This document shows, in pieces, positions 1 through 26,406 of a stretch of 64,000 nucleotides of DNA. The position numbers and the translations under genes were made by a program. The number at the start of each line of letters is the position of its first letter. The first letter of the stretch is position 1. The notes below the pieces were generated by a model, which was not told where the DNA came from, ran no database searches, and saw only the letters and a list, made by a program, of their open reading frames with translations. Where the stretch lies: positions 1 to 64,000 of IMG/VR virus record IMGVR_UViG_3300020477_001468; one strand, 5' to 3'. The stretch is from a virus.

Positions 1-458
1 TAATCCCATTCATAAAAACTAACATCACCACCGATGGTAAAACCACCACCTTGATTTTCATCTCCTTCTGCCTCGTGGCCATTTTCACTTTTTGATTGAT
101 CTGCTCCCAAGACCATAAATTTACCTTCTTCTGCTTTCCCTCTTACACCTTCTAATGCTTCATGTTTTTCTCTTGAATATTTTAATTGATGAGATCTTGG
201 TATATTATCTTTACTTAAAACCCACAAGTAAATCCAATTTGGCTCATCTATATAATGTTTTAAATATAGTCCTTTCTCTGGTATAGCAATTTTTGGTAAT
301 CCTAATAATGAAGTATAAGTAACATAAGTTGATGTACTTAATACTAAAAGAATAGGAATAAACCAAATTAGAAATTTCCAACTCTTTCTTTGCTCAATTA
401 ATAACCAAAGACAAACTGTAGAAAGAACAACTAATCCAAAAACTAAAATTGCTATCAT
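1..458 (-). CDS. partial two-helix membrane protein of unknown function
   Basis: An open frame starts at the ATG at 458 and runs off the left edge without a stop, giving about 152 visible residues. Two hydrophobic segments (about residues 2-21 and 28-50) are followed by a hydrophilic tail ending in a Gly/Glu/Asn-rich stretch. The start lies 2 bases after the stop of the MotB/ExbD-like gene, and the GAGG just inside that gene can serve as ribosome binding site, so the two are probably one operon. I do not recognise the family. Its position suggests a partner of the proton-channel-like pair, which is inference. Confidence 0.6.
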   Translation of the reverse strand, partial: MIAILVFGLVVLSTVCLWLLIEQRKSWKFLIWFIPILLVLSTSTYVTYTSLLGLPKIAIPEKGLYLKHYIDEPNWIYLWVLSKDNIPRSHQLKYSREKHEALEGVRGKAEEGKFMVLGADQSKSENGHEAEGDENQGGGFTIGGDVSFYEWD

Positions 459-460
459 AT

Positions 461-1228
461 CTACCTCATGCTCCCTGAATTACGAATTTGAGGATTACTT
501 AGTTCAACTGCTCCACTAGGTTCATAAGCAGGTTCATCTTCAATTTGATCACCCTCAAAAGGGTCAGGTGCTGAACTTATTGACCTGTTATACCGAGCTA
601 CAAACTTTTTTTGTAGATACTTAAAATCTCCAATTTGTTCTCCATCTGGTCCTATTGTAAATCTTACAAAAGTTTCTTCTTGTCCTCTATTAGTAAATGT
701 CTTTTCTCCTACCCACCAAATTTTATAAGGATTCACTCTATGTAATTCTATTTTTACCGTTAATGATTTTGGTTCAGATGAATTTGTTCCTGTGTTCAAT
801 CTTCCATCATTAGCCCAAGTTCGTTGTGAATAATAATGAGCATTAATTATATACTCACCAGGAATGATTCCTCTAATAGTAACTACTTCTCTATTAATAT
901 TTACTTTTGTAATTGTACCATCTACATTTTTTACAATATCATTTGCATAACCCAAATCATCTTTATCTAAGTACATAAAATTGACTATAGGTAATCTAAA
1001 ATGTACTTTGCTTTGTGTTGGATCTTGTACATATAGATCAATATCATCTGGTGCATCATGATCCCATTCCATGACAACAACGAATTCAGCTTTTCGTTCA
1101 AAATCTTCTTTTTTTGCTTCTGGCTTGATTAATAAAAAGGCAATAATGAAAAGGAAAGCAAACCCAACAAGAATGTTAAAAAGCAGATCAGTGAAACCAA
1201 TTGTAGATTTATATTTCTCATTGTTCAT
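461..1228 (-). CDS. MotB/ExbD/TolR-like single-helix membrane protein
   Basis: 255 aa. A short cytoplasmic N-terminus leads into one transmembrane helix (about residues 14-34) that starts with a Thr-Asp pair at 13-14. This matches the place of the proton-binding Asp in MotB, ExbD and TolR helices. The soluble remainder (35-255) is not an OmpA/peptidoglycan-binding domain. It has a beta-sandwich-like pattern with a DDIDLYVQDP motif and a later GEYIINAHYY motif, and a low-complexity acidic C-terminus. It overlaps the MotA/ExbB-like gene upstream by 11 bases, as expected for a co-translated channel pair. The likely role is the plug or stator half of an ion-driven inner-membrane complex. The channel assignment rests on the helix and the neighbour; the periplasmic partner is unknown. 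Confidence 0.65.
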   Translation of the reverse strand: MNNEKYKSTIGFTDLLFNILVGFAFLFIIAFLLIKPEAKKEDFERKAEFVVVMEWDHDAPDDIDLYVQDPTQSKVHFRLPIVNFMYLDKDDLGYANDIVKNVDGTITKVNINREVVTIRGIIPGEYIINAHYYSQRTWANDGRLNTGTNSSEPKSLTVKIELHRVNPYKIWWVGEKTFTNRGQEETFVRFTIGPDGEQIGDFKYLQKKFVARYNRSISSAPDPFEGDQIEDEPAYEPSGAVELSNPQIRNSGSMR

Positions 1229-1685
1229 TCAGCACCACTTCAAGATTCACCAATTGAACTTTGATGATAAGTGAACACACTAATCCAACTAGGGTTGTCC
1301 AAAGAGCTGTACTCATCCCTATTGCCATATCTGACAATGCTTGTTGTAAAGTTATTGCATTTGATACATCTACATTTTCAAATGCTGTTCCTAACATTAA
1401 TAAAAACCCCGTAACAGTTCCTACCATTCCAAGAGCAAGACATGCTTCTGCGATAAACCATCCTACATCACTTTTTTGATTGTAATCGTGATGTACTCCA
1501 ACTTGATAAGTTTTTCTACCTATCCAAACAGAAGTACCTAAAAAGATAGTTAGTATGAAAAAGCTTAAACGTGTTACATCAGCTTCATATAATTCTTGAT
1601 GGACATTAAAATATAGACATATAATTAATCCTAAAACCACAACACAAAATATGAGCCACCATTTTAATAATGAAACCATCTCCAT
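1218..1685 (-). CDS. MotA/TolQ/ExbB-like proton channel protein
   Basis: 155 aa with four hydrophobic segments (about 8-26, 38-56, 78-101, 119-142). Segments three and four carry the family hallmarks: an ALGMVGTVTGFLLMLGTAF stretch and, after a short loop, AIGMSTALWTTLVGL, with small and Thr residues lining the predicted channel. It is shorter than MotA and lacks a large cytoplasmic domain, so it is closer to a minimal ExbB/TolQ core. The ATG at 1685 follows AAGAAGGA, a plausible ribosome binding site. The next gene overlaps by 11 bases and supplies the MotB/ExbD-type partner. Family membership is well supported by pattern; what the channel powers is unknown. Confidence 0.75.
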   Translation of the reverse strand: MEMVSLLKWWLIFCVVVLGLIICLYFNVHQELYEADVTRLSFFILTIFLGTSVWIGRKTYQVGVHHDYNQKSDVGWFIAEACLALGMVGTVTGFLLMLGTAFENVDVSNAITLQQALSDMAIGMSTALWTTLVGLVCSLIIKVQLVNLEVVLNEQ

Positions 1686-1755
1686 TCCTTCTTATTTTTA
1701 AATTTTTGGTAATGTTTGATTATCTGCGATTAGCACGGATAAATAGCATTTCTTT

Positions 1756-1763
1756 TATTTATT
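1756..1763 (-). promoter_or_regulatory. candidate late promoter for the channel-protein operon
   Basis: The 122-base gap 1686-1807 holds no gene. On the minus strand it contains AATAAATA, close to the T4 late consensus TATAAATA, about 70 bases upstream of the MotA/ExbB-like start. I saw no clear terminator hairpin in the gap. One mismatch in an AT-rich genome makes this only suggestive. Confidence 0.35.
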
Positions 1764-1807
1764 AATGCGGTATTTTCACATCTTTTGTAAGGAAAATCAA
1801 CCACCAA

Positions 1808-2524
1808 TTAAGTTGGACATAATGCCCCACTACACTTAACCCATCCTGATGGTATATGCCAAAGCCATACCAATATATCCCATAAAAAAGTACCCATAGG
1901 CCCTTGTAATAAAAATACTAAAATTGCTCCCGACATGCCAAAAAGAAAACTATTGTAAGACCATTTAAGAAATTTATATTTACGAAGTGCAAGAACTTTT
2001 CCTTGACCGAAAATATCTCCAGCCATTGAATCATATATGCTGTCATCAGTCATCAAGATTTTTGCATAATCTTCTTTGTATTCGTGTATATCTAAATGAG
2101 CAAAATGTCCAAAAAAGAGAGGATTAAAAAGAGGAGATTTTCTATCAATTTCTTTTGATCCTTTTATTTTGGGATAAGCTGTGTTTGGTATGATTGCAAA
2201 GATAGCAAATAGTAATGTAAAAAAACAACCACATGCAAATGTTAATAGAGGCCACTTCATAACTTCATTACTAAGATTTGCAATTGTAACAGAAAATACA
2301 ATTGAAGAAACAGTGATCATTATATTGGCTTTCGCATCTGCCATCAAACCAAGTCGCATTTGATTACCGTGATTAACACGTAAGATGTTATCAACCGCAG
2401 TGCGATCTTCCGGAACCTTTTCAAATGGCCTTCGTTGCTTCAGGTCAGCCGGATCAACTGAAGCAGAGTGCCGGGTTACATGTCCCATTTTATTTGAGTG
2501 GAGGAGCATATAACAAGCCGCCAT
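1808..2524 (-). CDS. PycTM (DUF5706)-type membrane protein, Pycsar effector-like
   Basis: 238 aa from the first ATG. The start may be the ATG at 2488, 2 bases past the upstream stop, which would give 226 aa. The core matches the PycTM family: an N-terminal helix ending in RLGLMADAKANIMI (57-70), two adjacent membrane helices (about 66-84 and 93-113), then the family's NPLFFGHFAHL and EYKEDY motifs (134-153), a GQGKVLALRKYKFLKWSY helix (173-190) and a third membrane helix (190-207). In bacterial Pycsar defence such proteins damage the membrane when a cyclic pyrimidine nucleotide binds. No pyrimidine cyclase is encoded nearby. Here it is co-transcribed behind phage structural and holin-like genes. 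It could be a defence against rival phages, a decoy, or a lysis or energetics protein. Confidence 0.75.
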   Translation of the reverse strand: MAACYMLLHSNKMGHVTRHSASVDPADLKQRRPFEKVPEDRTAVDNILRVNHGNQMRLGLMADAKANIMITVSSIVFSVTIANLSNEVMKWPLLTFACGCFFTLLFAIFAIIPNTAYPKIKGSKEIDRKSPLFNPLFFGHFAHLDIHEYKEDYAKILMTDDSIYDSMAGDIFGQGKVLALRKYKFLKWSYNSFLFGMSGAILVFLLQGPMGTFLWDILVWLWHIPSGWVKCSGALCPT

Positions 2525-3599
2525 TTGAATATAGCTTATTATAACCTCTTTTTAACCCAAGTTCAGTGTTGAGCCCAAGATTTCTTTCATATATTTCTTC
2601 ATAATTACCAACTTGTTTAATAACTTCATATGCCCATCTAGCAGGTATTCCTAATTTAGCCCCAAGATGTGGAAAGTCTGCACCATTTACTTCACCCATA
2701 AATCTTTGTATCACAGGATCTATATTTTCTTCAAAAGTATCAATGTTAGATGAGGTAATACCATATTCTTCTGCGATGAATAAAACATAAATCGTCCATC
2801 TTACAATATCAGACCATTGTTGATCTCCATATTTAACTACTGGTCCAAGAGGTTCTTTGGAAATAATTTCTGGTAAAATAATATGCTGATCCGGATATTT
2901 AAATCCAATTCTATTAGAAGCTAACCCAGAACGATCTGTACCATACATATCACATTTACGATCTAAATAAAAATTTTTTGGACTTTGATCTACTGGAACT
3001 TCAACAGGAACATATGCTATATTATGCTTTATAAAAAAATCTTTAATATTTTTTGCTGCTGTACCTGTTGAACTATAACATATTCTTGCACCTATCATTT
3101 GTTTAGCAGAAGACACTCCAAGAGTTCTTCTTACCATGAATCCCTGGCCATCATAATAAGTTGTGGGCATGAATTCTAATTTTTTAATAACATTTCGAGT
3201 ATACGTATATGTTGTAGTAGCTGATAGTATATCAATTGTTCCATCTATCAAATAACTAAATCTTGTTTTACCATCTATGACTTCAAATTTAACTGCTTCT
3301 TTATCAAGAAACATTGCAGTTGCAACAGCACGACAAATGTCAACATCAAAGCCTCTAAAGCGTAGTGCACCTACTTCTTCATCCCAAAGTTCTTCACCAA
3401 AACCAGGCATAGTTTCTTTAGCACCACAAATTACATGCCCTCGTTTCATTACACGTTCGTATGTAGAACCATAGGTTGGTCGATATTCTTCTTTAGGTCC
3501 TGGGTCGGTTAAAGGAATACCTTCTGGTTCTGCTTTGGTTGAATTTGCTGTTATAAGTAAAAATATTAAAGTCGCAAACAGCTTACCAAATAAAATCAT
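2490..3599 (-). CDS. AapJ/BztA-like general L-amino-acid-binding periplasmic protein
   Basis: 369 aa. Residues 1-23 form a signal peptide with a TKA-E cleavage site. The mature part follows the AapJ family closely: VMKRGHVICGAKETMPGF near the start, FRGFDVDICRAVA, a YYDGQGFMVRRTLGV segment, a CDMYGTDRSGLA segment, ILPEIISKEPLGPVVKYGD, and a C-terminal GLNTELGLKRGYN / GGLLYAPPLK. In alphaproteobacteria this protein feeds amino acids to the AapQMP ABC transporter. No permease or ATPase gene is seen here, so it would have to use a host transporter or only bind ligand. It overlaps the cytochrome gene by 4 bases (ATGA). It is a clear host-derived gene inside a phage operon. Confidence 0.9.
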   Translation of the reverse strand: MILFGKLFATLIFLLITANSTKAEPEGIPLTDPGPKEEYRPTYGSTYERVMKRGHVICGAKETMPGFGEELWDEEVGALRFRGFDVDICRAVATAMFLDKEAVKFEVIDGKTRFSYLIDGTIDILSATTTYTYTRNVIKKLEFMPTTYYDGQGFMVRRTLGVSSAKQMIGARICYSSTGTAAKNIKDFFIKHNIAYVPVEVPVDQSPKNFYLDRKCDMYGTDRSGLASNRIGFKYPDQHIILPEIISKEPLGPVVKYGDQQWSDIVRWTIYVLFIAEEYGITSSNIDTFEENIDPVIQRFMGEVNGADFPHLGAKLGIPARWAYEVIKQVGNYEEIYERNLGLNTELGLKRGYNKLYSNGGLLYAPPLK

Positions 3600-4045
3600 T
3601 GCAATGTCCTGTAAATTGCTAGAAGTTCTTCATCCGGTATTTGAGTTGGCATAGTATAATATCTTTGATGCCCTACTTGCATAAATGCTTTAATATCAGA
3701 AAAACTAGGATACTTAGTAAGGAGATTATGCAATAAATGATCTGGACTTAAATGACATCCTGCACATTGATTGTCTCTCGCAAAAACTCTTGTTGCTTTT
3801 TTAAATCGTTCTGATTGTACCAATACATTATGTAAGTCTTTTTCCATCCATATAACTTTTTCATTAATGTCTGGGATAACATAAAAAATTAAGTATATTA
3901 ACAAACCGATTATGGTGTATATGAATACTCGACTTGAAGCAACCAGATTTTTAGTTTCTATTTCTATTGCTTTTACTGGTTCCAGTTCCATTACATCAAC
4001 TTTTTCATCTGCAATAGATTTTGGAGCCTTCTTTTGTTCTGCCAT
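3596..4045 (-). CDS. membrane-anchored monohaem c-type cytochrome
   Basis: 149 aa. A charged cytoplasmic N-terminus of about 37 residues is followed by one membrane helix (38-57) and a C-terminal domain. That domain contains a haem-binding CAGCH (Cys94, Cys97, His98) and a distal YYTMPTQIPDEEL segment whose Met132 is the likely sixth ligand. Its end (EELLAIYRTLQ) matches the last helix of class I cytochromes c. It would need the host cytochrome c maturation system. It sits between the holin-like and AapJ-like genes and overlaps the latter by 4 bases. It may donate or divert electrons at the host inner membrane; the partner is unknown. Confidence 0.8.
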   Translation of the reverse strand: MAEQKKAPKSIADEKVDVMELEPVKAIEIETKNLVASSRVFIYTIIGLLIYLIFYVIPDINEKVIWMEKDLHNVLVQSERFKKATRVFARDNQCAGCHLSPDHLLHNLLTKYPSFSDIKAFMQVGHQRYYTMPTQIPDEELLAIYRTLQ

Positions 4046-4053
4046 AATTTACC

Positions 4054-4401
4054 TCAACTTTTCCTTCCTGCTTCATGTAACTTTTTGGTAATTTGTTGTT
4101 GAAACCATTTGAGAACAATTGGTATGCTCACATTTGATGTCAACCCAAAAAGATAACCTATGGGATAACGATAACTCTCATATGCCGCAAGTTGTGGAAC
4201 ATTAGTGAATACTATAGAGATCAACAAATATCCAGTTGTTGACATTCCCATATTAATGAATAAATCTAAGACAATTAACCATTTATGGCCAGCATATTTT
4301 TCTTTGTGGTCCTGTCTATAATTGAATAAAAAAATCCAAAATGATGAAAAAAGAACTAATCCAATCATCATGAATTCTTTTACATTAAATATTTCTTCCA
4401 T
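4054..4401 (-). CDS. small three-helix membrane protein, holin-like
   Basis: 115 aa with three hydrophobic segments (about 10-27, 41-64, 78-98) and a short basic tail, the size and shape of a class I holin. It sits directly after the small terminase gene (adjacent, no gap) and before the cytochrome. I see no endolysin gene in the window to pair with it. The call rests on topology and context rather than a diagnostic motif; an unrelated inner-membrane protein is possible. Confidence 0.4.
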   Translation of the reverse strand: MEEIFNVKEFMMIGLVLFSSFWIFLFNYRQDHKEKYAGHKWLIVLDLFINMGMSTTGYLLISIVFTNVPQLAAYESYRYPIGYLFGLTSNVSIPIVLKWFQQQITKKLHEAGRKS

Positions 4402-4785
4402 TTACTTTGCCTTCTTTTTCAGCATTTTTTGTAACTCTGCTGTACTCCCAACAAATAAAGCATTTGTAACATTTTGGGGTGTTACTGTATCATCTTTTTG
4501 AATCTCTTTTATTTGCCTATGCAGATTAATTAGTTCCTTATTAGCATTAGTCAATTTATCCATTAATTGACCTACTACTTCATATGCTCTAGGATGCTCC
4601 GTTTCCTGAGCTACTTGTAGGAGGCCTTCCATTGCATCCTGTCCTCGTTCAATAATATTATATAAATTTTCACGAGTGTATTGAAAATCTGTATTCGATG
4701 TATTTTCTGTTTGTGGTGCAACAGCACGCTCTTGAGTTGTTGGAGATTCTACTATCTCAAACACTTTGTCTAATTTGTCTACCAT
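4402..4785 (-). CDS. 16: small terminase subunit, T4 gp16-like
   Basis: 127 aa, mostly helical and charged, with a central YTRENLYNIIERGQDAMEGLL segment and a coiled-coil-like region, ending in a Lys-rich tail. This pattern is that of the T4-like small terminase, which recognises DNA and regulates the large subunit during packaging; T4 gp16 is somewhat longer (164 aa). It follows gp15 by 2 bases, the T4 gene order. The large terminase gp17, which follows gp16 in T4, is not present in the 4.4 kb downstream. Confidence 0.75.
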   Translation of the reverse strand: MVDKLDKVFEIVESPTTQERAVAPQTENTSNTDFQYTRENLYNIIERGQDAMEGLLQVAQETEHPRAYEVVGQLMDKLTNANKELINLHRQIKEIQKDDTVTPQNVTNALFVGSTAELQKMLKKKAK

Positions 4786-7704: not shown

Positions 7705-7712
7705 TATTTATG
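7705..7712 (-). promoter_or_regulatory. candidate T4-type late promoter before gp13
   Basis: Minus-strand CATAAATA, one base from the T4 late consensus, lies 28 bases upstream of the gp13 start and abuts the stop of the upstream gene. AAGGAA near 7684 is the ribosome binding site. Confidence 0.5.
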
Positions 7713-8501: not shown

Positions 8502-9428
8502 GTGAGTAAATCTATGAAGCAAGTTATTTGTACTGGAACTGCTGTACTTGACCATATTTTTCAACTATCAAAAATACCCCAAACTCCAACAAAGAGTTTT
8601 GCTAAAGATTATACTATTACTAGTGGTGGTAATGCATCAACTGCAGCAATTGCTCTAAGTTGTGCTGGAGGTCGTTCTATTTTTTGGGGTGTCATTGGTG
8701 ATGATTATAATGGAGATTTAATTTTAAAAAATCTTACAAAGTTTAATGTAGATGTCCAAAATGTTCAACGATTACCAGGTGTTAACTCAGGAATATCTAC
8801 TGTTCTGATTGATGATAAAGGTGAACGTCTTGTTATTCATTATAGTGATCAAAAGCTCTTTTCTAATGCTGACTGGCTTCCACTTGAAAGACTTAAAGAA
8901 AGTGATGCTGTACTCGTTGATTGGCGTTGGCCTAAAGGAGCAATGAAAGTTCTAAGCAAAGCTCATGAATTAGGAATTCCTTCTGTCCTTGATGCAGATT
9001 TAAACCCACAAAGTCTTAATGAAGATGTAATAAGTCTCGCTACACATGTTCTTTTTTCTAAACCAGCATTAAAAGAATTTGGAGGTGAGAATATAGTAAC
9101 AGCACTTAAATGTGCTAAAGAACTAAACAAAGGTTGGGTAGGAGTCACAGATGGTTCAGGTGGAACATATTGGTTAGAAACACTTGGAAAGCATTGTGAT
9201 GCTCTACGTCATTTTCCAGCATTTAAAGTAAAGACCTTAAATACTCTTGGTGCAGGAGATGTTTTTCATGGAGTCTTTACGTTATGTTTAGCTGAAGGAA
9301 ACTCTGAAGAAAATGCAATCCGTATTGCTTCTGCTGCAGCAGCCATACATTGTTCAAAAGCTCCATATAGACATAAGTCTATTCCAAATAGAAATAGTAT
9401 TGATAAATTTATAAAAGAAAACGCATGA
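8502..9428 (+). CDS. PfkB-family carbohydrate kinase
   Basis: 308 aa from the GTG at 8502; an ATG at 8514 is an alternative start. It has the two PfkB signatures: an N-terminal substrate-binding SGGNASTAAIAL (41-52) and a C-terminal ATP/anion-hole NTLGAGDVFHG (247-257) with catalytic Asp253. Usual PfkB members have Asp where this has Asn247. Length is normal for the family (ribokinase, sulfofructose kinase and relatives). It heads a rightward operon with an epimerase and a nucleotidyltransferase, so it probably phosphorylates a sugar that is later activated. The specific sugar cannot be told. Confidence 0.85.
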   Translation: MSKSMKQVICTGTAVLDHIFQLSKIPQTPTKSFAKDYTITSGGNASTAAIALSCAGGRSIFWGVIGDDYNGDLILKNLTKFNVDVQNVQRLPGVNSGISTVLIDDKGERLVIHYSDQKLFSNADWLPLERLKESDAVLVDWRWPKGAMKVLSKAHELGIPSVLDADLNPQSLNEDVISLATHVLFSKPALKEFGGENIVTALKCAKELNKGWVGVTDGSGGTYWLETLGKHCDALRHFPAFKVKTLNTLGAGDVFHGVFTLCLAEGNSEENAIRIASAAAAIHCSKAPYRHKSIPNRNSIDKFIKENA

Positions 9429-10126
9429 AACAAAAAATATTACTCACAGGAATTAAAGGCTTTATTGGTCACCATTGCTACAACTATTTAAAAGATGAAT
9501 ATGATATTATAGGTATTGATAATTGCTCAGGACTTGCGCATGATGAAAGAGAAGTTCCATATACACATGAAAACTTACTCACTTGTAAGTTACCTGATGT
9601 TGATGTTGTATTACACTTAGCTGCAAAAGCAGGGGTAAAAGAAAGTTGGGTAAAATTAGAAGATTATTATAATAGCAATGTTGTAGTTACAAAACGTATT
9701 TTTGATCATTATACCAAAGCTAAAATAGTATATGCCTCTAGTTCATCTGTTATAGATTTAATGAGTCCATATGCTATGACAAAAGCAATGTGTGAGACAA
9801 TGGCTCCCTCAAATGCTATAGGCATGAGATTTTTTACTGTATATGGTCCTAGCAGTAGACCAGATATGTTATACAGAATGGCTATGGAAGATAAACTCAC
9901 ATACATAACACAACATCAACGAGACTTTACTCATATTAATACTTTATTACCTTTAATTAAAGCAGTCATTCAAAAAGGTAAAGAAGGACATGTTTATGAA
10001 ATGGGTGAAGGAAATCCAGAAACAGTAGAGCAGTTTTTAAAAAGAATTAATTATACAAAAGATGTTCCTTTCAAAGAAGTAACAGGCGAAAGTGAATATA
10101 CATGTTCTAAACCTTTTACAATATAA
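9425..10126 (+). CDS. NAD-dependent epimerase/dehydratase (extended SDR), short form
   Basis: 233 aa. The Rossmann motif TGIKGFIG (8-15), DVVLHLAAKAGV (60-71), SSSS (105-108) and the catalytic YAMTK (Tyr116, Lys120) mark an extended SDR of the UDP-sugar epimerase type, followed by a MRFFTVYGP segment and the QRDFTHI motif. At 233 residues it is about 80 shorter than normal, mostly through loss in the substrate-binding C-terminal half. It overlaps the kinase by 4 bases. It probably acts on a nucleotide sugar, if active. Confidence 0.85.
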   Translation: MKQKILLTGIKGFIGHHCYNYLKDEYDIIGIDNCSGLAHDEREVPYTHENLLTCKLPDVDVVLHLAAKAGVKESWVKLEDYYNSNVVVTKRIFDHYTKAKIVYASSSSVIDLMSPYAMTKAMCETMAPSNAIGMRFFTVYGPSSRPDMLYRMAMEDKLTYITQHQRDFTHINTLLPLIKAVIQKGKEGHVYEMGEGNPETVEQFLKRINYTKDVPFKEVTGESEYTCSKPFTI

Positions 10127-21490: not shown

Positions 21491-22297
21491 ATGCCACTCG
21501 ATTATGATACCTTAATTAAACCAATATGTGATGATATAGATACAAATTATACTGGTTATAAAAATTATTATATTAACCAAATGTATCTACCCATATATTG
21601 GGATAAAAATGCAATTGTTACTGTCTATGCTCATATTGCTGAATCAGTTATTGTATATTTAAATGCTAATCATGCCGGTAAAAGATTCCTTGAATGTAAT
21701 ATGAAAGATGGTTTAATAAAATATTACAATGAAGATGCAACAAACGGGCTTGCTAATCCTTTAAACATCAAAAGTGCATGTCATCTAGCAGACTGGCATA
21801 CAGCAGTCACATGTAGCAGAACAGGAGATACAACATCAGATATATCTGATGCTGCATCCATAAATGAAAATCCAGATGACCATAATGGATTCTTTTTTAT
21901 TAGAATGAAAGCGGCTTTAGGTGTCCAAGCTGATTATTGTCGTATAGCACGGCCATTGGATGGTAATTATCCAACAGATTGGATCCAAACAACTCCTAAT
22001 GATGCAACAGCTATTGATCTTAATAATTTTGATATGTTACTTATAGGTGTACCTGATGCACAAATTTTTAACGATGTTAACAATTTTAAATCTACAACTG
22101 GATATAATGGATCAATTCTTTTTTATGATGTTGGCTTTGAAGGTGAAGATGAGGAATCACGAAGATCGTTAATTCTTTCAGATATGGGATTAACATGGGA
22201 TGATATGAAATATAAGAATGATAACTGTGTCTTAGCAAATCTACCAGCACATGACGTTGTTGATCTGAGTGGCCATACTGGATATTTAATATCATGA
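21491..22297 (+). CDS. hypothetical protein, possibly virion-associated
   Basis: 268 aa, soluble, acidic, not recognised. No signal peptide or membrane segment is visible. It has its own candidate late promoter and an AGGAGA ribosome binding site at optimal spacing, which is unusual among the overlapping genes of this island and suggests high expression. Composition (many Asp, Asn, Thr and aromatic residues) resembles a structural or binding protein more than an enzyme; this is inference. Confidence 0.6.
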   Translation: MPLDYDTLIKPICDDIDTNYTGYKNYYINQMYLPIYWDKNAIVTVYAHIAESVIVYLNANHAGKRFLECNMKDGLIKYYNEDATNGLANPLNIKSACHLADWHTAVTCSRTGDTTSDISDAASINENPDDHNGFFFIRMKAALGVQADYCRIARPLDGNYPTDWIQTTPNDATAIDLNNFDMLLIGVPDAQIFNDVNNFKSTTGYNGSILFYDVGFEGEDEESRRSLILSDMGLTWDDMKYKNDNCVLANLPAHDVVDLSGHTGYLIS

Positions 22298-22301
22298 AGG
22301 A

Positions 22302-23210
22302 ATGAAAAACCTGTTTATTACGCATTTGTATAGACAAGGTAATGGTGATATAATTCAACTACTATCTAATATACATAATGCTGTTTCTAATAATGCTTAT
22401 ATACTATTTGATAACTCATTTACCCGTGATGGTATAAAAAGACCTTTTAGTTATGAAGAACAATTTGCTGTTTTAGAAAATCAAATAAAAAAAATAATAT
22501 TCTGGAACGAGGTGTTCCTTGATAATGCTCCAGCTGTTAATATTATATACAAAGGTCGTATTATTAATAGTAAAAAACATTTTGAATTTTTAACTGATAA
22601 TAATAAACTTTTTGATGTAGCAACATTAACAAAAATAGATTTAAATACTGAACAGTGTAAAGTAACATATCAAGAAGATTGGATTGATTTTGTTAAAAAA
22701 CATAATATGGTGTTTTTTCCTTCTACTTTTAAGCATCAACCAAAAGATCATATTGGATTGAGTTTACGCACAGATTATTCAGCATATGGATTTGATACAC
22801 TTGATTGGCTTGAATGTGAATATATTGAACAAATGTTTCAGGATCAAAAAATTAAATATATTGATTATTTTATTGATCAATCTTTGTTACAATTTCCATC
22901 CCATAAAAAAAGATTTGGTTCTTGGAAAGGTCAAGGTATAGCTTTTCATGTTAATGATACGATTACAAATCAAGATATTCAAAATTTTAAAAATTTTTGT
23001 GAAGATTTAAAAACATGTAAATTTTTAGTATGTACAGAAGGTGGGATGAGTCATATGGCTGCATGTATGAGAATACCATTTTACATCTTTGGAAATTTTA
23101 ATAGAGACAATGAGGAAGCATTTCTTGAACTGTGGCAAAACTATTACGCTCCCCATGGTATTGTAACTGAAGATTTAATAACTTTAAAAGAAAGGGTATA
23201 TGAAACTTAA
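22302..23210 (+). CDS. heptosyltransferase-like (GT9/GT-B-type) protein
   Basis: 302 aa. The C-terminal part CKFLVCTEGGMSHMAACMRIPFYIFG follows the GT9 pattern in which a Gly-rich turn and a His are followed by an Ala-rich helix and a Pro. The start RQGNGDIIQLLSNIHNA fits the N-terminal GxGD(I) loop of the same fold. A weaker relative lies at 30418. It would transfer a sugar from a nucleotide donor onto a glycan. Moderately sure of the fold, not of the substrate. Confidence 0.5.
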   Translation: MKNLFITHLYRQGNGDIIQLLSNIHNAVSNNAYILFDNSFTRDGIKRPFSYEEQFAVLENQIKKIIFWNEVFLDNAPAVNIIYKGRIINSKKHFEFLTDNNKLFDVATLTKIDLNTEQCKVTYQEDWIDFVKKHNMVFFPSTFKHQPKDHIGLSLRTDYSAYGFDTLDWLECEYIEQMFQDQKIKYIDYFIDQSLLQFPSHKKRFGSWKGQGIAFHVNDTITNQDIQNFKNFCEDLKTCKFLVCTEGGMSHMAACMRIPFYIFGNFNRDNEEAFLELWQNYYAPHGIVTEDLITLKERVYET

Positions 23211-23298
23211 ATATAGGTTAAGATACTACTGGTACAAATTTAAACATCTTTTTATAAAAAGAAAAAAGAAAGATCCACCAATTTATATCTATGACTGA
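23200..23298 (+). CDS. very small basic, Tyr-rich protein, translationally coupled
   Basis: 32 aa. The ATG at 23200 overlaps the upstream stop (ATGAAACTTAA) and its own stop overlaps the start of the next radical SAM gene (ATGACTGA), so the ORF fills the gap exactly. The product has about a dozen Lys/Arg and seven Tyr plus one Trp, with a PP near the end. It could be a leader peptide that couples translation, or a small substrate for the adjacent SPASM-type radical SAM enzyme. No family known. Confidence 0.45.
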   Translation: MKLKYRLRYYWYKFKHLFIKRKKKDPPIYIYD

Positions 23299-24475
23299 TA
23301 TGGTAAAGTGTCCAGTACCTAATTCTTGTTTAACAATAAATCCTGATGGAACATTAGCACCATGTTGTCAGGCATCATTACCTTTTGAGCGTGACGATAA
23401 ATTTATTTCTCTTCAAACAACAGATTCATTACTTAATTTTTTTAATAGTCCTTTTTTAAATAATATTAGAGAAAATATTAAAACTAAAGGTATCCATCCA
23501 AGATTATGTAATGAATGTATTGATCAGCACAATAATAATGAACGTACATTCATGGATATGTACGATGATACACTTGTACGATTATGGAAGATTAATAGAA
23601 AAGACTTATCATACCTTGAATTAACTACAAGTAATTTATGTAATCAAACTTGTACCACTTGTAATGGCTTTCTTTCTTCAGCTTGGAATATACTTGATAA
23701 GAAAATTTTAAAAGCATATCCAGGTTTAGACGAAGATTTAAGTGAGAAGAGAGTTAGCAGGCATTGGATAAAAAATGATATAAGATTAACACAAAAAGAT
23801 ATTGATAAGATAAAACCAATTTTACCTAAATTAAGAGTGTTTTGTATAAAGGGAGGTGAACCTTTTGCTGATAAGAAAAATATGGATCTGCTTGAATATC
23901 TTGCAAAAGTTAATCCAGATTGTTATGTTCAAATAATAACCAATTTTACGTTAGTAGATAAGTATATTCATATACTGAAAAAATTTAGACGTCTTGATGT
24001 AGATGCTAGTGTTGATGGTCTATATGATCAATATGAATGGATGCGAAGCTCAAAGTGGAAGAAATTGCTTGAACAAATGGATCTTTATATTCATAAAACA
24101 CGTAAGCAAACAATGATTAATATTACTGTTTCAATTTACAACTATTTTAATTTACATGAAATAATTAAATATTGGGATAAGAGTCCTTATTCAAGAACAC
24201 TTGCAGCAACAAATATTGTACATCATCCAAAAATATCAAGTTTTAAATTTTTAAAGCAAGACTACTTAAATATGTTTTATGATAAAATTGATCCAAATTT
24301 TACTGGTATTGTACTTGATCGTCCAACGTCTTTTAAAGACCAAGATTTAAAATTTAGTAGAAAATTTTATTATCAAAAAATGCAAAAATGGATTGATGTA
24401 ATGGATAGTATGAGAGGATTTAAATTAGTTGATTCAGTACCTGAATTAAACCTATTAGAAGAGATGATATTATGA
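23291..24475 (+). CDS. radical SAM enzyme with N-terminal SPASM/twitch-like region
   Basis: 394 aa. The N-terminal segment CLTINPDGTLAPCCQ and a CNEC pair (about 73-76) look like a SPASM or twitch cluster placed before the core rather than after it. The core has LCNQTCTTC (Cys117, 121, 124) and the SAM-binding KGGEPF (187-192). The genes at 26390 and 27531 share this domain order, so three paralogues are present. It starts inside the small ORF and overlaps the SGNH hydrolase by 4 bases. Confidence 0.85.
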   Translation: MTDMVKCPVPNSCLTINPDGTLAPCCQASLPFERDDKFISLQTTDSLLNFFNSPFLNNIRENIKTKGIHPRLCNECIDQHNNNERTFMDMYDDTLVRLWKINRKDLSYLELTTSNLCNQTCTTCNGFLSSAWNILDKKILKAYPGLDEDLSEKRVSRHWIKNDIRLTQKDIDKIKPILPKLRVFCIKGGEPFADKKNMDLLEYLAKVNPDCYVQIITNFTLVDKYIHILKKFRRLDVDASVDGLYDQYEWMRSSKWKKLLEQMDLYIHKTRKQTMINITVSIYNYFNLHEIIKYWDKSPYSRTLAATNIVHHPKISSFKFLKQDYLNMFYDKIDPNFTGIVLDRPTSFKDQDLKFSRKFYYQKMQKWIDVMDSMRGFKLVDSVPELNLLEEMIL

Positions 24476-25314
24476 TTTTATGTTTTGGTTGTAGCTTCAC
24501 AGATCATACTAAAGTTTCTTTTTGTGAACCCACTCGTGATACAGACTTTATAAGATGGCCAAAAATTATAGGCAAAATGCTTAATAAAAAATCTTATAAT
24601 TTAGCTTTAAGTGGTTTATCTAATGATGCTATTCAACAAAGAATTAAAACAGAACTTGTAAAACATCATAAAGAAATTGATTTTGTTTTTGTACAATGGA
24701 CAGAGTGGTATAGATTTTCATTAATGCATAATACGATGTATAGTTTCATGTTTACGCATCTTGTTGATGAGTGGTTAGAAACATTTCATAATGCTGAAAG
24801 CGAAGGCTATTTAAAAGATATCTCTCCAAATTTTAAAAATAATATTGATATGGAATCACATCATTTAATGAATATGATGCATTTTTTAAATTATAGATAT
24901 GAAAAAGATACAACTGAAGCTGAAAAACGCAGAGGAATAGCTTCTAAAGATTTTATAAATTATTTTGTGATTGGAGTTTACCATACAATACAAAAATTTT
25001 GTGAGGCATATAATATACCAATTATTCACATTCAAGGTGTAGGAATTACTCCCACTGAAGGTTATTGTAATGTTTTAAATGTACAATATGGTCAGTACCA
25101 AAAAGAAATGTTGGAGAATTATATGGAGCTGTTTGTTGATAATTTTATAGGATGGCCTATAATGCCTGCTCTAGGTGGACATACAATTGCTGATAAACTT
25201 GATGAACATGGAGAAGATTTATATATTTCTATAATGGATAGACACCCAAATGCAGAAGGTCATGAAATGATAGCTGAACTTTTTCTTGACAGATATAAGA
25301 TGTTATATGTATAG
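24472..25314 (+). CDS. SGNH-type hydrolase
   Basis: 280 aa. The block I motif reads CFGCSFTD, with Ser in GxSxT but Cys instead of Asp in GDS. The C-terminal block V DRHPNAEGH has the catalytic Asp/His spacing. A longer insertion in the middle (about 85-160) distinguishes it from the gene at 12353. It overlaps the radical SAM gene that follows by 8 bases (ATGTATAG). Likely an esterase or acyltransferase on a glycan or lipid. Confidence 0.7.
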   Translation: MILCFGCSFTDHTKVSFCEPTRDTDFIRWPKIIGKMLNKKSYNLALSGLSNDAIQQRIKTELVKHHKEIDFVFVQWTEWYRFSLMHNTMYSFMFTHLVDEWLETFHNAESEGYLKDISPNFKNNIDMESHHLMNMMHFLNYRYEKDTTEAEKRRGIASKDFINYFVIGVYHTIQKFCEAYNIPIIHIQGVGITPTEGYCNVLNVQYGQYQKEMLENYMELFVDNFIGWPIMPALGGHTIADKLDEHGEDLYISIMDRHPNAEGHEMIAELFLDRYKMLYV

Positions 25315-26059
25315 AAATGCTTTTAGACAACAAAAAATAAATGCATGGGTTGATTTATCTACCTTGTGTAATGCAAAATGTCCTCAATGCCATAGAACCA
25401 ATCCTAATGGATTAGATAAACAAGAATGGCTACCTCTTGTTCAATGGACATTATTAGATTTTAAAAAAGCATTTCCAATACAAACACTAAAGCACATTCA
25501 AAGATTTGAAATTTGTGGTACATGGGGTGATCCAATAGCAAATAAAGATATTGATAAAATTGTTGAATATATTATTAATCATTCTAATAGTGAAATTATT
25601 ATCAATACAAATGGTAGTCTTAGATCAAGAAATTGGTGGTATAAATTGGGTATGATTGGTAAAAAAAGATTATCAATTTTCTTTGCCATAGAAGGTATTG
25701 ATCAAGAAATGCATAGTGCATATAGAGTAAATACTGATCTACGAAAAATTCTTGACAATATGTTAGAATTTGGTAAACATAGTATTGTAAAAGTATTTGT
25801 AGTTGTTTTTGATCATAATGAAGATTACTTGGAAGAAATATATCAAATGTGTGAACTTTATAATTCTAAAGAAACATTATTTTTTCCTTCAAACAGATTT
25901 GGTCCACATCCAGATTTTGATTATGTGTACAAAAACAAGCAACTGAAACTAAAACCAGTACGCAGTATGGATAGTCCTTTTTATCGCCCAGAGGATGCAT
26001 ATAAATGGAAAATTAATTTAACTGGTAAACATAAAAAAGATATGCATTTAAAGTTATGA
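25307..26059 (+). CDS. radical SAM enzyme lacking a fused SPASM domain
   Basis: 250 aa from the ATG at 25307; an in-frame TTG at 25286 lies further inside the upstream gene. The cluster motif is CNAKCPQC (Cys21, 25, 28) and the second motif EICGTWGDPI. The protein ends before any SPASM cysteines. These are supplied by the separate gene at 26056, which overlaps as ATGA. An A6 run at 26033-26038 could hide an indel that would join the two frames. Confidence 0.8.
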   Translation: MYRNAFRQQKINAWVDLSTLCNAKCPQCHRTNPNGLDKQEWLPLVQWTLLDFKKAFPIQTLKHIQRFEICGTWGDPIANKDIDKIVEYIINHSNSEIIINTNGSLRSRNWWYKLGMIGKKRLSIFFAIEGIDQEMHSAYRVNTDLRKILDNMLEFGKHSIVKVFVVVFDHNEDYLEEIYQMCELYNSKETLFFPSNRFGPHPDFDYVYKNKQLKLKPVRSMDSPFYRPEDAYKWKINLTGKHKKDMHLKL

Positions 26060-26406
26060 AAAAAATAATATGTCAATGGGAAAAGGTTGATAAAGTTTTA
26101 ATCAATCCTGATGGACAAGTATTTCCATGTTGTTATCTATCAAATCCAGCTTACACTGCTAAAATTCAAGAAGCAAAAGACGGCAAGGTTTCATATGGAT
26201 GGGATGTTGTGAATGATCCAACACCAACTGCAGAAACTAATGTAATTAGAAAATATTATGAACATGAAAAAGATTTAAATGTTTTTAACAAATCTTTAAG
26301 TGATGTCCTTGCTCATAAATGGTTTCAAGAAATATTACCAAAATCATGGGAAGATGAAAAAACTTGCCATAAAATTTGTAAAATGATGTGTGAACGTGAA
26401 GTCTAA
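26056..26406 (+). CDS. free-standing SPASM-domain protein
   Basis: 116 aa. It has Cys6, the LINPDGQVFPCCYLSN segment with Cys25-Cys26, and terminal cysteines at 104, 108 and 112 (CHKICKMMC), the auxiliary-cluster ligands of a SPASM domain without a radical SAM barrel. It overlaps the radical SAM gene upstream by 4 bases, so the two probably form a two-chain enzyme. Alternatively one frame was broken by an indel in the A6 run at 26033-26038. Confidence 0.65.
   Translation: MKKIICQWEKVDKVLINPDGQVFPCCYLSNPAYTAKIQEAKDGKVSYGWDVVNDPTPTAETNVIRKYYEHEKDLNVFNKSLSDVLAHKWFQEILPKSWEDEKTCHKICKMMCEREV

What the first reader, a model, noticed from the sequence alone, without database searches (positions are those of the whole stretch)
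1..4401. Bioenergetic and periplasmic gene cassette placed after the small terminase gene
After gp13-14-15-16 the expected gp17 does not follow. The 4.4 kb to the window edge instead encode a holin-like protein, a membrane cytochrome c, an AapJ-like amino-acid-binding protein, a PycTM-type effector, a MotA/ExbB plus MotB/ExbD-like pair and a further membrane protein, all on one strand with 2-11 base junctions. Each acts at the host inner membrane or periplasm, so together they look like a module for controlling the proton-motive force, uptake or lysis. I know of no named phage system with this composition.
Basis: partly seen in the sequence, partly recalled or inferred. Interest (0 to 1): 0.85.

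Follow-up and report, generated by a model that had tools for sequence, protein, structure and literature searches.

The report
Two phage envelope gene cassettes
Uncultivated T4-like phages, probably marine, carry two portable sets of envelope genes, one with a haem protein and an amino-acid-binding protein and one resembling a tiny proton-driven motor also found in bacteria, and what either set does is unknown.

Summary
The seven genes are real, but they are two cassettes, and gp17 is off the contig rather than replaced: window base 1 is the end of a 75,021-bp fragment, and TerL follows in relatives long enough to show it.

Cassette A (hol–cytC–SBP–PycTM): among 67 distinct cytC genes, hol is directly upstream in 67 and SBP directly downstream in 61 of 65. 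Upstream of hol sits TerS (36 of 66) or a 5'-nucleotidase-like gene (19). It is under purifying selection, and the cytC tree conflicts with the gp15 and TerS trees.

Cassette B (ExbB-like, ExbD-like, 2-TM mem1) usually lies elsewhere. It also occurs in Rhizobium phages. Its ExbD profile hits 58 of 385 alphaproteobacterial genomes, with all three genes in 25 of 26 places examined. The ExbD-like protein keeps the membrane Asp and models as TerD-like.

Both look late-expressed here, by T4-type late-promoter motifs before gp13 (reading into A) and before ExbB. M15 endolysins lie far from A in two larger relatives.

Most likely function: managing respiration, uptake and proton-motive force late in infection (0.4). 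Lysis or its timing is the main rival (0.3). The single-module reading fails; in the papers searched I saw no description of either set.

The parts
4402..4785 (-). TerS (gp16), landmark just upstream of cassette A
   Evidence: PF11053 E 1.2e-9, phrog_445 E 3.6e-40
4054..4401 (-). Cassette A gene 1, 'hol': 115-aa helical membrane protein of unknown family
   Evidence: AF2 model of four helices, pLDDT 84.8; no PDB match at E<=0.001; directly upstream of cytC in 67 of 67 distinct cytC genes; 0 of 385 alphaproteobacterial genomes, 8 of 8 phage-record controls
3596..4045 (-). Cassette A gene 2, cytC: N-terminally anchored mono-haem c-type cytochrome
   Evidence: CxxCH in 67 of 67; H98, H106, M122, H126 invariant, M132 in 46 of 67
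2490..3599 (-). Cassette A gene 3, SBP: AapJ/BztA-type amino-acid-binding protein with a signal-peptide-like N terminus (by eye)
   Evidence: PF00497 E 1.8e-9; profile of relatives hits PDB 4z9n full length, E 1.2e-126; R135, T180, D222 invariant in 11 rows
1808..2488 (-). Cassette A gene 4, PycTM-domain membrane protein (likely start 2488; longest ORF starts 2524)
   Evidence: PF18967 E 3.6e-21; PADLOC PycTM E 2e-14; alignment A3
1756..1763 (-). Late-promoter-like AATAAATA, 78 bp upstream of ExbB, in the 122-bp gap between A and B
7705..7712 (-). Late-promoter-like CATAAATA, 35 bp upstream of gp13; may drive gp13 through PycTM
1218..1685 (-). Cassette B gene 1, MotA/TolQ/ExbB-like proton-channel subunit
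   Evidence: PF01618 E 1.8e-7; homologues in Rhizobium phages and cells
461..1228 (-). Cassette B gene 2, ExbD/TolR/MotB-like: one TM helix with invariant Asp14 and a TerD-like beta-sandwich, probably periplasmic
1..458 (-). Cassette B gene 3, mem1: two TM helices and a C-terminal domain, probably periplasmic; 3' end cut by the contig end

Best explanation
Two separable, probably late-expressed, purifying-selected envelope cassettes that manage host inner-membrane energetics and uptake while virions are being assembled. A (read here from the gp13-TerS transcript): cytC is anchored on the periplasmic face of the inner membrane and would carry electrons between host respiratory complexes. The AapJ-type SBP would feed amino acids to the host's Aap-type ABC permease. 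Hol and PycTM are its membrane partners. B (own late-type promoter here): an ExbB-ExbD-type proton-driven motor with a TerD-like periplasmic head and a third membrane protein, shared with a cellular system of alphaproteobacteria. It would turn proton flow into work on the envelope. Shown by computation: gene identities, order conservation, selection, the cytC tree conflict, the invariant Asp, the modelled fold match, the motif enrichment, and cellular relatives of B. Inferred: late timing, periplasmic location, partners, electron transfer, amino-acid delivery, motor activity, and the net effect on proton-motive force.
For: Order hol-cytC 67 of 67, cytC-SBP 61 of 65. Median dN/dS: hol 0.070 (282 pairs), cytC 0.093 (149), PycTM 0.105 (50), SBP 0.148 (53), ExbB 0.134 (7), ExbD 0.101 (4), mem1 0.066 (1), against TerS 0.145 (19) and gp15 0.149 (124). 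Haem motif 67 of 67. SBP is full-length AapJ/BztA-like with invariant R135/T180/D222. TM Asp invariant in 16 of 16 ExbD-like proteins of viral contigs and cultured Rhizobium/Sinorhizobium phages. Late motif: 8 of 16 sites in the 75-kb record lie within 100 bp upstream of a gene start, 0.86 expected by position; 20 of 53 vs 3.05 in G001; 20 of 54 vs 4.16 in G004. M15_3 endolysin genes (PF08291, E 4.3e-19 and, partial, 8.5e-20) lie about 129 and 26 kb from A in G001 and G004. B in cells.
Against: No experiment. No permease or oxidase gene was found in the block. The usual distal haem-ligand candidate M132 is present in only 46 of 67 (invariant M122 or H126 could serve). A lipobox-bearing class-3 lipase lies in 14 of 67 A loci, which fits membrane destruction better than uptake. 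PycTM-domain proteins are known as membrane-acting effectors (recalled). Three SBP relatives (L045-L047, 41-43% identical) lack cytC upstream, against 36 with it, of 39 testable. Elsewhere B sits beside RNR (7 of 27 distinct ExbB genes), SbcC-like and other genes, and in Rhizobium phages among replication-type genes, so late timing may not be general; only 8 of 27 ExbB genes have the motif within 150 bp.
Confidence: 0.4

Rival explanations
1. A, often with the lipase, and B form a lysis or lysis-timing apparatus: hol and PycTM make or gate inner-membrane lesions, the lipoprotein lipase and the B motor weaken the outer membrane in place of a spanin, and cytC/SBP only tune membrane potential.
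For: Late-promoter motifs; lipobox-like Lipase_3 in 14 of 67 A loci and directly after mem1 in L058/L148, one contig; no spanin noticed by eye beside the endolysins of G001 and G004 (not searched by profile).
Against: The M15_3 endolysin genes of G001 and G004 lie elsewhere; hol is strongly conserved (median dN/dS 0.070) and matches no Pfam or PHROGs family; a conserved haem motif and amino-acid-binding residues have no lytic role; in Rhizobium phages B sits among replication-type genes.
Confidence: 0.3
2. The cassettes are anti-defence or superinfection-exclusion devices: PycTM and the ExbB/ExbD pair mimic or poison membrane effectors such as Pycsar TM or ZorAB, and the rest blocks rival DNA entry.
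For: PADLOC PycTM E 2e-14 and weak ZorA hits, best E 8.2e-5.
Against: The invariant membrane Asp argues for a working motor, not a dead decoy. Relatives of the phage PycTM in 6 of 385 alphaproteobacterial genomes (two confirmed as PF18967) have no cyclase that I could see by eye in flanks of at most about 1.5 kb, so the domain need not mean Pycsar. cytC and SBP stay unexplained. Late promoters fit poorly.
Confidence: 0.15
3. Unlinked passengers: a hot spot between TerS and TerL that collects unrelated envelope genes.
For: The surroundings of A vary (lipase, HNH gene, unidentified ORFs), PycTM is missing between SBP and TerL in L025, L027, L030 and L031, and B alone follows TerS in L067 and L068.
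Against: hol-cytC-SBP keep their order also where a 5'-nucleotidase-like gene stands upstream (19 of 66 loci). ExbD directly follows ExbB in 24 of 24 testable contigs and mem1 follows ExbD in 18 of 22, and the triple recurs in other phages and in cells. dN/dS is low.
Confidence: 0.1

Closest known systems
Ion-driven 5:2 rotary motors (MotAB, ExbBD, TolQR; ZorAB)
   Same: B has a MotA/TolQ/ExbB-family channel protein and a single-TM partner with an invariant Asp in the TM helix
   Different: The head of the partner models as TerD-like, it has no Pfam hit, a 2-TM third gene usually follows, and no TonB- or Pal-like gene was seen in the block. PMC9389320 (passages seen) describes the conserved Asp in MotB, TolR and AglQ/S; those passages mention no TerD-headed member.
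AapJ/BztA amino-acid-binding proteins (PDB 4z9n)
   Same: Full-length homologue, profile E 1.2e-126; the AapJ/BztA name is recalled
Pycsar TM effector (PF18967)
   Same: Domain hit E 3.6e-21
   Different: No linked cyclase; relatives also occur in cells without one in sight
Phage-borne uptake genes such as cyanophage PstS (recalled)
   Same: T4-like phage encoding a host-like periplasmic binding protein
   Different: Embedded in a fixed block with a cytochrome c and two membrane proteins

Membership tests
5:2 ion-driven motors (MotAB/ExbBD/TolQR) | MotA/TolQ/ExbB-family channel subunit | tested here: met
   PF01618 31.4 bits, cut-off 22.9
5:2 ion-driven motors (MotAB/ExbBD/TolQR) | Single-TM partner with conserved Asp in the membrane | tested here: met
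   D14 invariant in 16 of 16 rows; helix 4-33 in the model
5:2 ion-driven motors (MotAB/ExbBD/TolQR) | ExbD/TolR or OmpA-like periplasmic domain | tested here: inconclusive
   No Pfam hit; model matches TerD-like chains at VIA Z 11.4, 10.4, 10.0, also 7jtk_A 10.1 and 9a6r_B 9.8, next row 6.8
5:2 ion-driven motors (MotAB/ExbBD/TolQR) | 5:2 assembly driven by proton flow | not testable with these tools
   needs structure or flux assay
Pycsar | PycTM-type effector domain | tested here: met
   PF18967 76 bits, cut-off 27.2
Pycsar | Linked pyrimidine nucleotide cyclase (PycC) | tested here: not met
   None among the ten window proteins scanned; in L019, L103 and L119 the block lies between TerS and TerL with no extra gene called. 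Beyond the window's contig end is unseen.
AapJ/BztA binding proteins | Full-length homology | tested here: met
AapJ/BztA binding proteins | Amino-acid binding | not testable with these tools
   R135, T180, D222 invariant; their match to LAO-type ligand residues is recalled
Zorya | ZorA with its long tail plus ZorB and ZorC/D or ZorE (recalled) | tested here: not met
   Weak ZorA hits to a 155-aa protein, no other Zorya hit among the ten proteins scanned
Canonical holin-endolysin-spanin cassette | Known holin family with adjacent endolysin | tested here: not met
   No family hit for hol; M15_3 endolysins about 129 and 26 kb away in G001 and G004
Class I cytochrome c | CxxCH haem motif | tested here: met
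   67 of 67
Class I cytochrome c | Distal Met ligand | tested here: inconclusive
   M132 in 46 of 67; M122 and H126 invariant; Pfam hits only below cut-off

The most novel reading that the evidence does not exclude
B is an unrecognised family of proton-driven envelope motor (ExbB, ExbD with a TerD-like, possibly calcium-binding head, mem1), widespread in alphaproteobacteria and shared with phages of different families. With the apparently phage-only haem-c/AapJ/PycTM cassette A it forms a late-infection system that controls membrane energy and thereby the moment of lysis.
Probability: 0.28. Interest if true: 0.87.

Novelty: new variant of a known kind. Interest (0 to 1): 0.7.

Why it matters
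159 viral-contig stretches encode relatives of the window cytC, yet no A or B protein of the window has a PHROGs hit below E 0.07. If A tunes host respiration, uptake or lysis, it is a new handle on how T4-like phages control infected cells. B links phages to an unannotated cellular triple in alphaproteobacteria, 14 of the 58 hit genomes being 0.8-1.4 Mb, and cultured Rhizobium and Sinorhizobium phages (P10VF, 16-3) make it testable now.

Tried and rejected
Rejected: gp17 replaced by the cassette (contig end; TerL follows in relatives). One seven-gene module (A and B usually apart). hol as a recognised holin (no family or fold match). A as the holin-endolysin cassette (endolysins elsewhere in two relatives). 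A confined to the TerS-TerL gap (19 of 66 loci have a 5'-nucleotidase-like gene upstream). A in non-T4 phage families: several contigs lack T4 neck genes, but they are fragments and some show TerL or RNR/ThyX, so I make no such claim (TerL-family hit in 6 of 17 records, one weak). Exchange of hol between lineages: not significant (p-AU 0.27), unlike cytC (0.0007). A 74-aa ORF near A that I took for a SAP-domain protein: no Pfam hit. A 153-aa protein beside G004's endolysin that I took for a GTA-type holin: no Pfam hit.

Led nowhere: tblastn against 50,697 phage records found nothing for ExbB (E limit 0.01) or cytC, hol and PycTM (0.1), and for SBP only 4 records at 23-29% identity; near records may be left out of that collection. 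A Rhizobium ExbB query in viral contigs found only its own phage. Foldseek for hol.

Weak points: gene calls are from my own longest-ORF caller, which fails in high-GC loci (redone with all ORFs). The ExbB and mem1 profiles include cellular rows, so their cellular hits are partly circular; blastp with phage queries and the hits to Rhizobium-phage proteins, which were not in those two profiles, are independent. Two of the 58 hit genomes score only 6.9e-5 in long frames and may be unrelated; 54 score 1e-28 or better. Class searches drew 385 genomes, not all. The tree test was chosen after I had seen identity tables. Paper searches cover open-licence PMC only.
Full report
Setting. The window is bases 1-64000 of a 75,021-bp IMG/VR virus record. 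TerS, gp15 and gp14 are identified by profile. The tail-sheath stabiliser gp15 has relatives in 1,974 phage records; the 20 listed are Synechococcus-type T4-like phages at 43-46% identity. No TerL-family match is in the record (phrog_2), because the contig stops inside mem1: most related mem1 proteins run about 8-17 residues further.

The genes. After TerS run hol, cytC, SBP and PycTM with junctions of 0, 8, -4 and about +1 bases. Then comes a 122-base gap, then ExbB, ExbD-like and mem1 with junctions of -11 and +2.

Two cassettes, not one. Scans of viral contigs gave 47 SBP loci, 26 ExbB loci, 12 ExbD loci and 159 cytC relatives, the best 80 kept. Some loci are one contig fetched twice, so I counted distinct complete cytC proteins: 67, window included. 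hol precedes cytC in 67 of 67. SBP follows directly in 61 of 65 with a called downstream gene; of the other four, three have SBP later. The gene before hol is TerS in 36, an NT5C-like gene in 19, lipase in 1 and others in 10, of 66. PycTM directly follows SBP in 34 of 52 testable loci; in L025, L027, L030 and L031 TerL follows SBP directly. TerL is seen downstream in 14 of the 67 printed contexts, also where TerS is not upstream; many of the rest are cut by the contig end. Starting from SBP instead, cytC lies directly upstream in 36 of 39 testable loci; the three exceptions (L045-L047) are the distant 41-43% relatives. Of 27 distinct ExbB genes, ExbB follows PycTM only in the window; upstream genes elsewhere are RNR (7), SbcC-like (2), TerS (2) and others (labels). 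ExbD directly follows ExbB in 24 of 24 testable contigs and mem1 follows ExbD in 18 of 22; in L071-L073 two ORFs intervene and in L063 none was called. Among 16 records chosen because they carry A or B, 4 carry both (G003, G004, G012, G013), besides the window and L065. G001 has A but no B even with profiles.

Evolution. Median pairwise dN/dS is 0.07-0.15 for A and B genes, like or below TerS and gp15 (0.145, 0.149); only equal-length pairs at 75% or more DNA identity and moderate dS were used, and for B that left 1-7 pairs per gene. In 40 loci with gp15, TerS, hol and cytC all complete, the 12 that form a clade (support 100, quick trees) in gp15 and TerS do not in cytC (p-AU 0.0007); hol does not reject the clade (p-AU 0.27). 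The group was defined by TerS identity, but I had seen identity tables before. I read this as exchange of at least cytC between T4-like lineages.

Expression. NATAAATA (T4-type late promoter, recalled) occurs 16 times in the 75-kb record against 79 expected from base composition, yet 8 of the 16 lie within 100 bp upstream of a same-strand gene start, 0.86 expected by position. G001 gives 20 of 53 (3.05 expected) and G004 20 of 54 (4.16). One site is 35 bp before gp13, from where genes run to PycTM without a gap of 20 bases; one is 78 bp before ExbB. Of 27 distinct ExbB genes 8 have the motif within 150 bp; of 65 hol genes 4 do, as expected if A is mostly read through from upstream. Late expression here is inferred, not tested.

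Cassette A proteins. SBP is an AapJ/BztA-type protein (4z9n, E 1.2e-126) with invariant R135, T180 and D222 in 11 rows. cytC keeps CxxCH in 67 of 67 with invariant H106, M122 and H126, but M132 in 46 of 67. hol models as four helices (pLDDT 84.8) without a PDB match; its profile hits 0 of 385 alphaproteobacterial genomes and 8 of 8 phage records. PycTM matches PF18967 with no cyclase beside it. Relatives found by the phage profile in 6 of 385 genomes (two tested, both PF18967; two matches carry stops in the aligned stretch) show no cyclase by eye in flanks of up to about 1.5 kb. So the Pycsar name is a family label, not a function. A class-3 lipase (PF01764 in the five copies tested) lies in 14 of 67 A loci; most copies begin with a lipobox-like stretch by eye.

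Cassette B proteins. ExbD-like matches are in 26 phage records by the window query, all Rhizobium or Sinorhizobium, and in 25 by a P10VF query, which also reaches temperate phage 16-3, NV1.1.1 and AP-16-3; P10VF ExbB matches 18. Neighbouring genes match too: P10VF_191-193, RHph_N3_13 063-065, RHph_I1_18 122-124, 16-3 p038/p040/p042 and NV1.1.1 084/086/088 by alignment, and for ExbB and mem1 by profiles that held none of them, at E 2.1e-5 or better among 27 proteins. The ExbD profile hits 58 of 385 alphaproteobacterial genomes at E<=1e-4, 54 of them at 1e-28 or better; 14 of the 58 are genomes of 0.8-1.4 Mb. Of 26 such places examined, 25 carry ExbB, ExbD and mem1 together; L291 has two ExbD genes only (partly circular; independent blastp). 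In cells, genes of a PQQ-dehydrogenase cluster (PF01011 in the one tested) lie next to B in 6 of 20 wider stretches, six of which my gene caller handled badly. In three (L277, L278, L282) a DUF3108-like lipoprotein (below cut-off) and an AI-2E transporter follow, near MreC and RodA genes (tested in L278).

Fold of the ExbD-like protein. The model (pLDDT 73.5, pTM 0.61) has one helix, 4-33, and strands from 49 to 203. VIA-align gives TerD-like chains Z 11.4 (3ibz, rmsd 4.7, 139 aligned), 10.4 (2qng, 3.5, 132) and 10.0 (2qz7, 3.7, 132), with 7jtk_A (radial spoke) 10.1 and 9a6r_B (GLPD-SCP2) 9.8; the next row is 6.8. Foldseek's three best are 2qng and two chains of the TerD homologue 2qz7 at E 1.8e-4 to 3.2e-4, but with query TM-scores of only 0.30-0.33. 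A sequence profile finds no PDB relative below E 0.4. Calcium binding is a guess from TerD, recalled.

Reading. Both cassettes put proteins at the inner membrane or periplasm, probably late. A conserved haem motif, amino-acid-binding residues and motor Asp under purifying selection argue for working proteins rather than mere membrane wreckers, so I prefer energy and uptake management (0.4) to lysis (0.3) or defence mimicry (0.15). The lipase and PycTM keep the lysis reading alive.

Literature. In these listings I saw no paper describing the cassettes: phage, cytochrome c, terminase, amino acid-binding, holin, marine; ExbB, phage genome, pelagiphage; ExbD, ExbB, phage, marine, auxiliary metabolic; cytochrome c, SAR11, phage, auxiliary metabolic, periplasmic, T4-like. 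Listings were used for context. Passages were seen in PMC9294509 (TonB, unrelated) and PMC9389320; a word search of PMC10460002 on AP-16-3 found no MotA, ExbB, holin, spanin or trypsin.

Noticed in passing
L252-L271, L285-L289 (unnamed alphaproteobacterial genomes): Cellular ExbB-ExbD(TerD-like)-mem1 triple, next to genes of a PQQ-dehydrogenase cluster in 6 of 20 wider stretches; function unknown.
   Followed up: partly
L153:1687-2772 (G001 21687-22772): A second phage-borne periplasmic binding protein, BMP-like (NCBIfam NF047927, E 5.9e-16, below its cut-off).
   Followed up: no
L162:5152-6367 (G004 25152-26367): Right after B: a small lipobox protein (by eye) and an SbmA-like transporter (NCBIfam NF009036 above cut-off, E 4.4e-124; SbmA model below cut-off). 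A similar small protein is in G001 at 69963-70196, which has no B.
   Followed up: partly
L292-L297: PycTM-like genes in alphaproteobacterial genomes without a cyclase in sight, by eye beside acyltransferase-like genes in L294-L296; PF18967 confirmed in L292 and L295.
   Followed up: partly
window 8502-10126: PfkB-type sugar kinase and NAD-dependent epimerase genes on the plus strand near gp13.
   Followed up: no
window 23291-26059: Two radical-SAM proteins, one with a SPASM domain.
   Followed up: no
L108:10475-10945: HNH endonuclease gene on the opposite strand between TerL and the tail sheath gene in several relatives.
   Followed up: no
L015, L067: Other insertions between gp15 and TerS (918 aa in L015; 424 and 191 aa in L067), so this stretch may be a wider insertion hot spot.
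   Followed up: no
G000, G001, G004: NATAAATA is rarer than base composition predicts (16 vs 79, 53 vs 149, 54 vs 115) and concentrated before genes, as if avoided elsewhere.
   Followed up: yes
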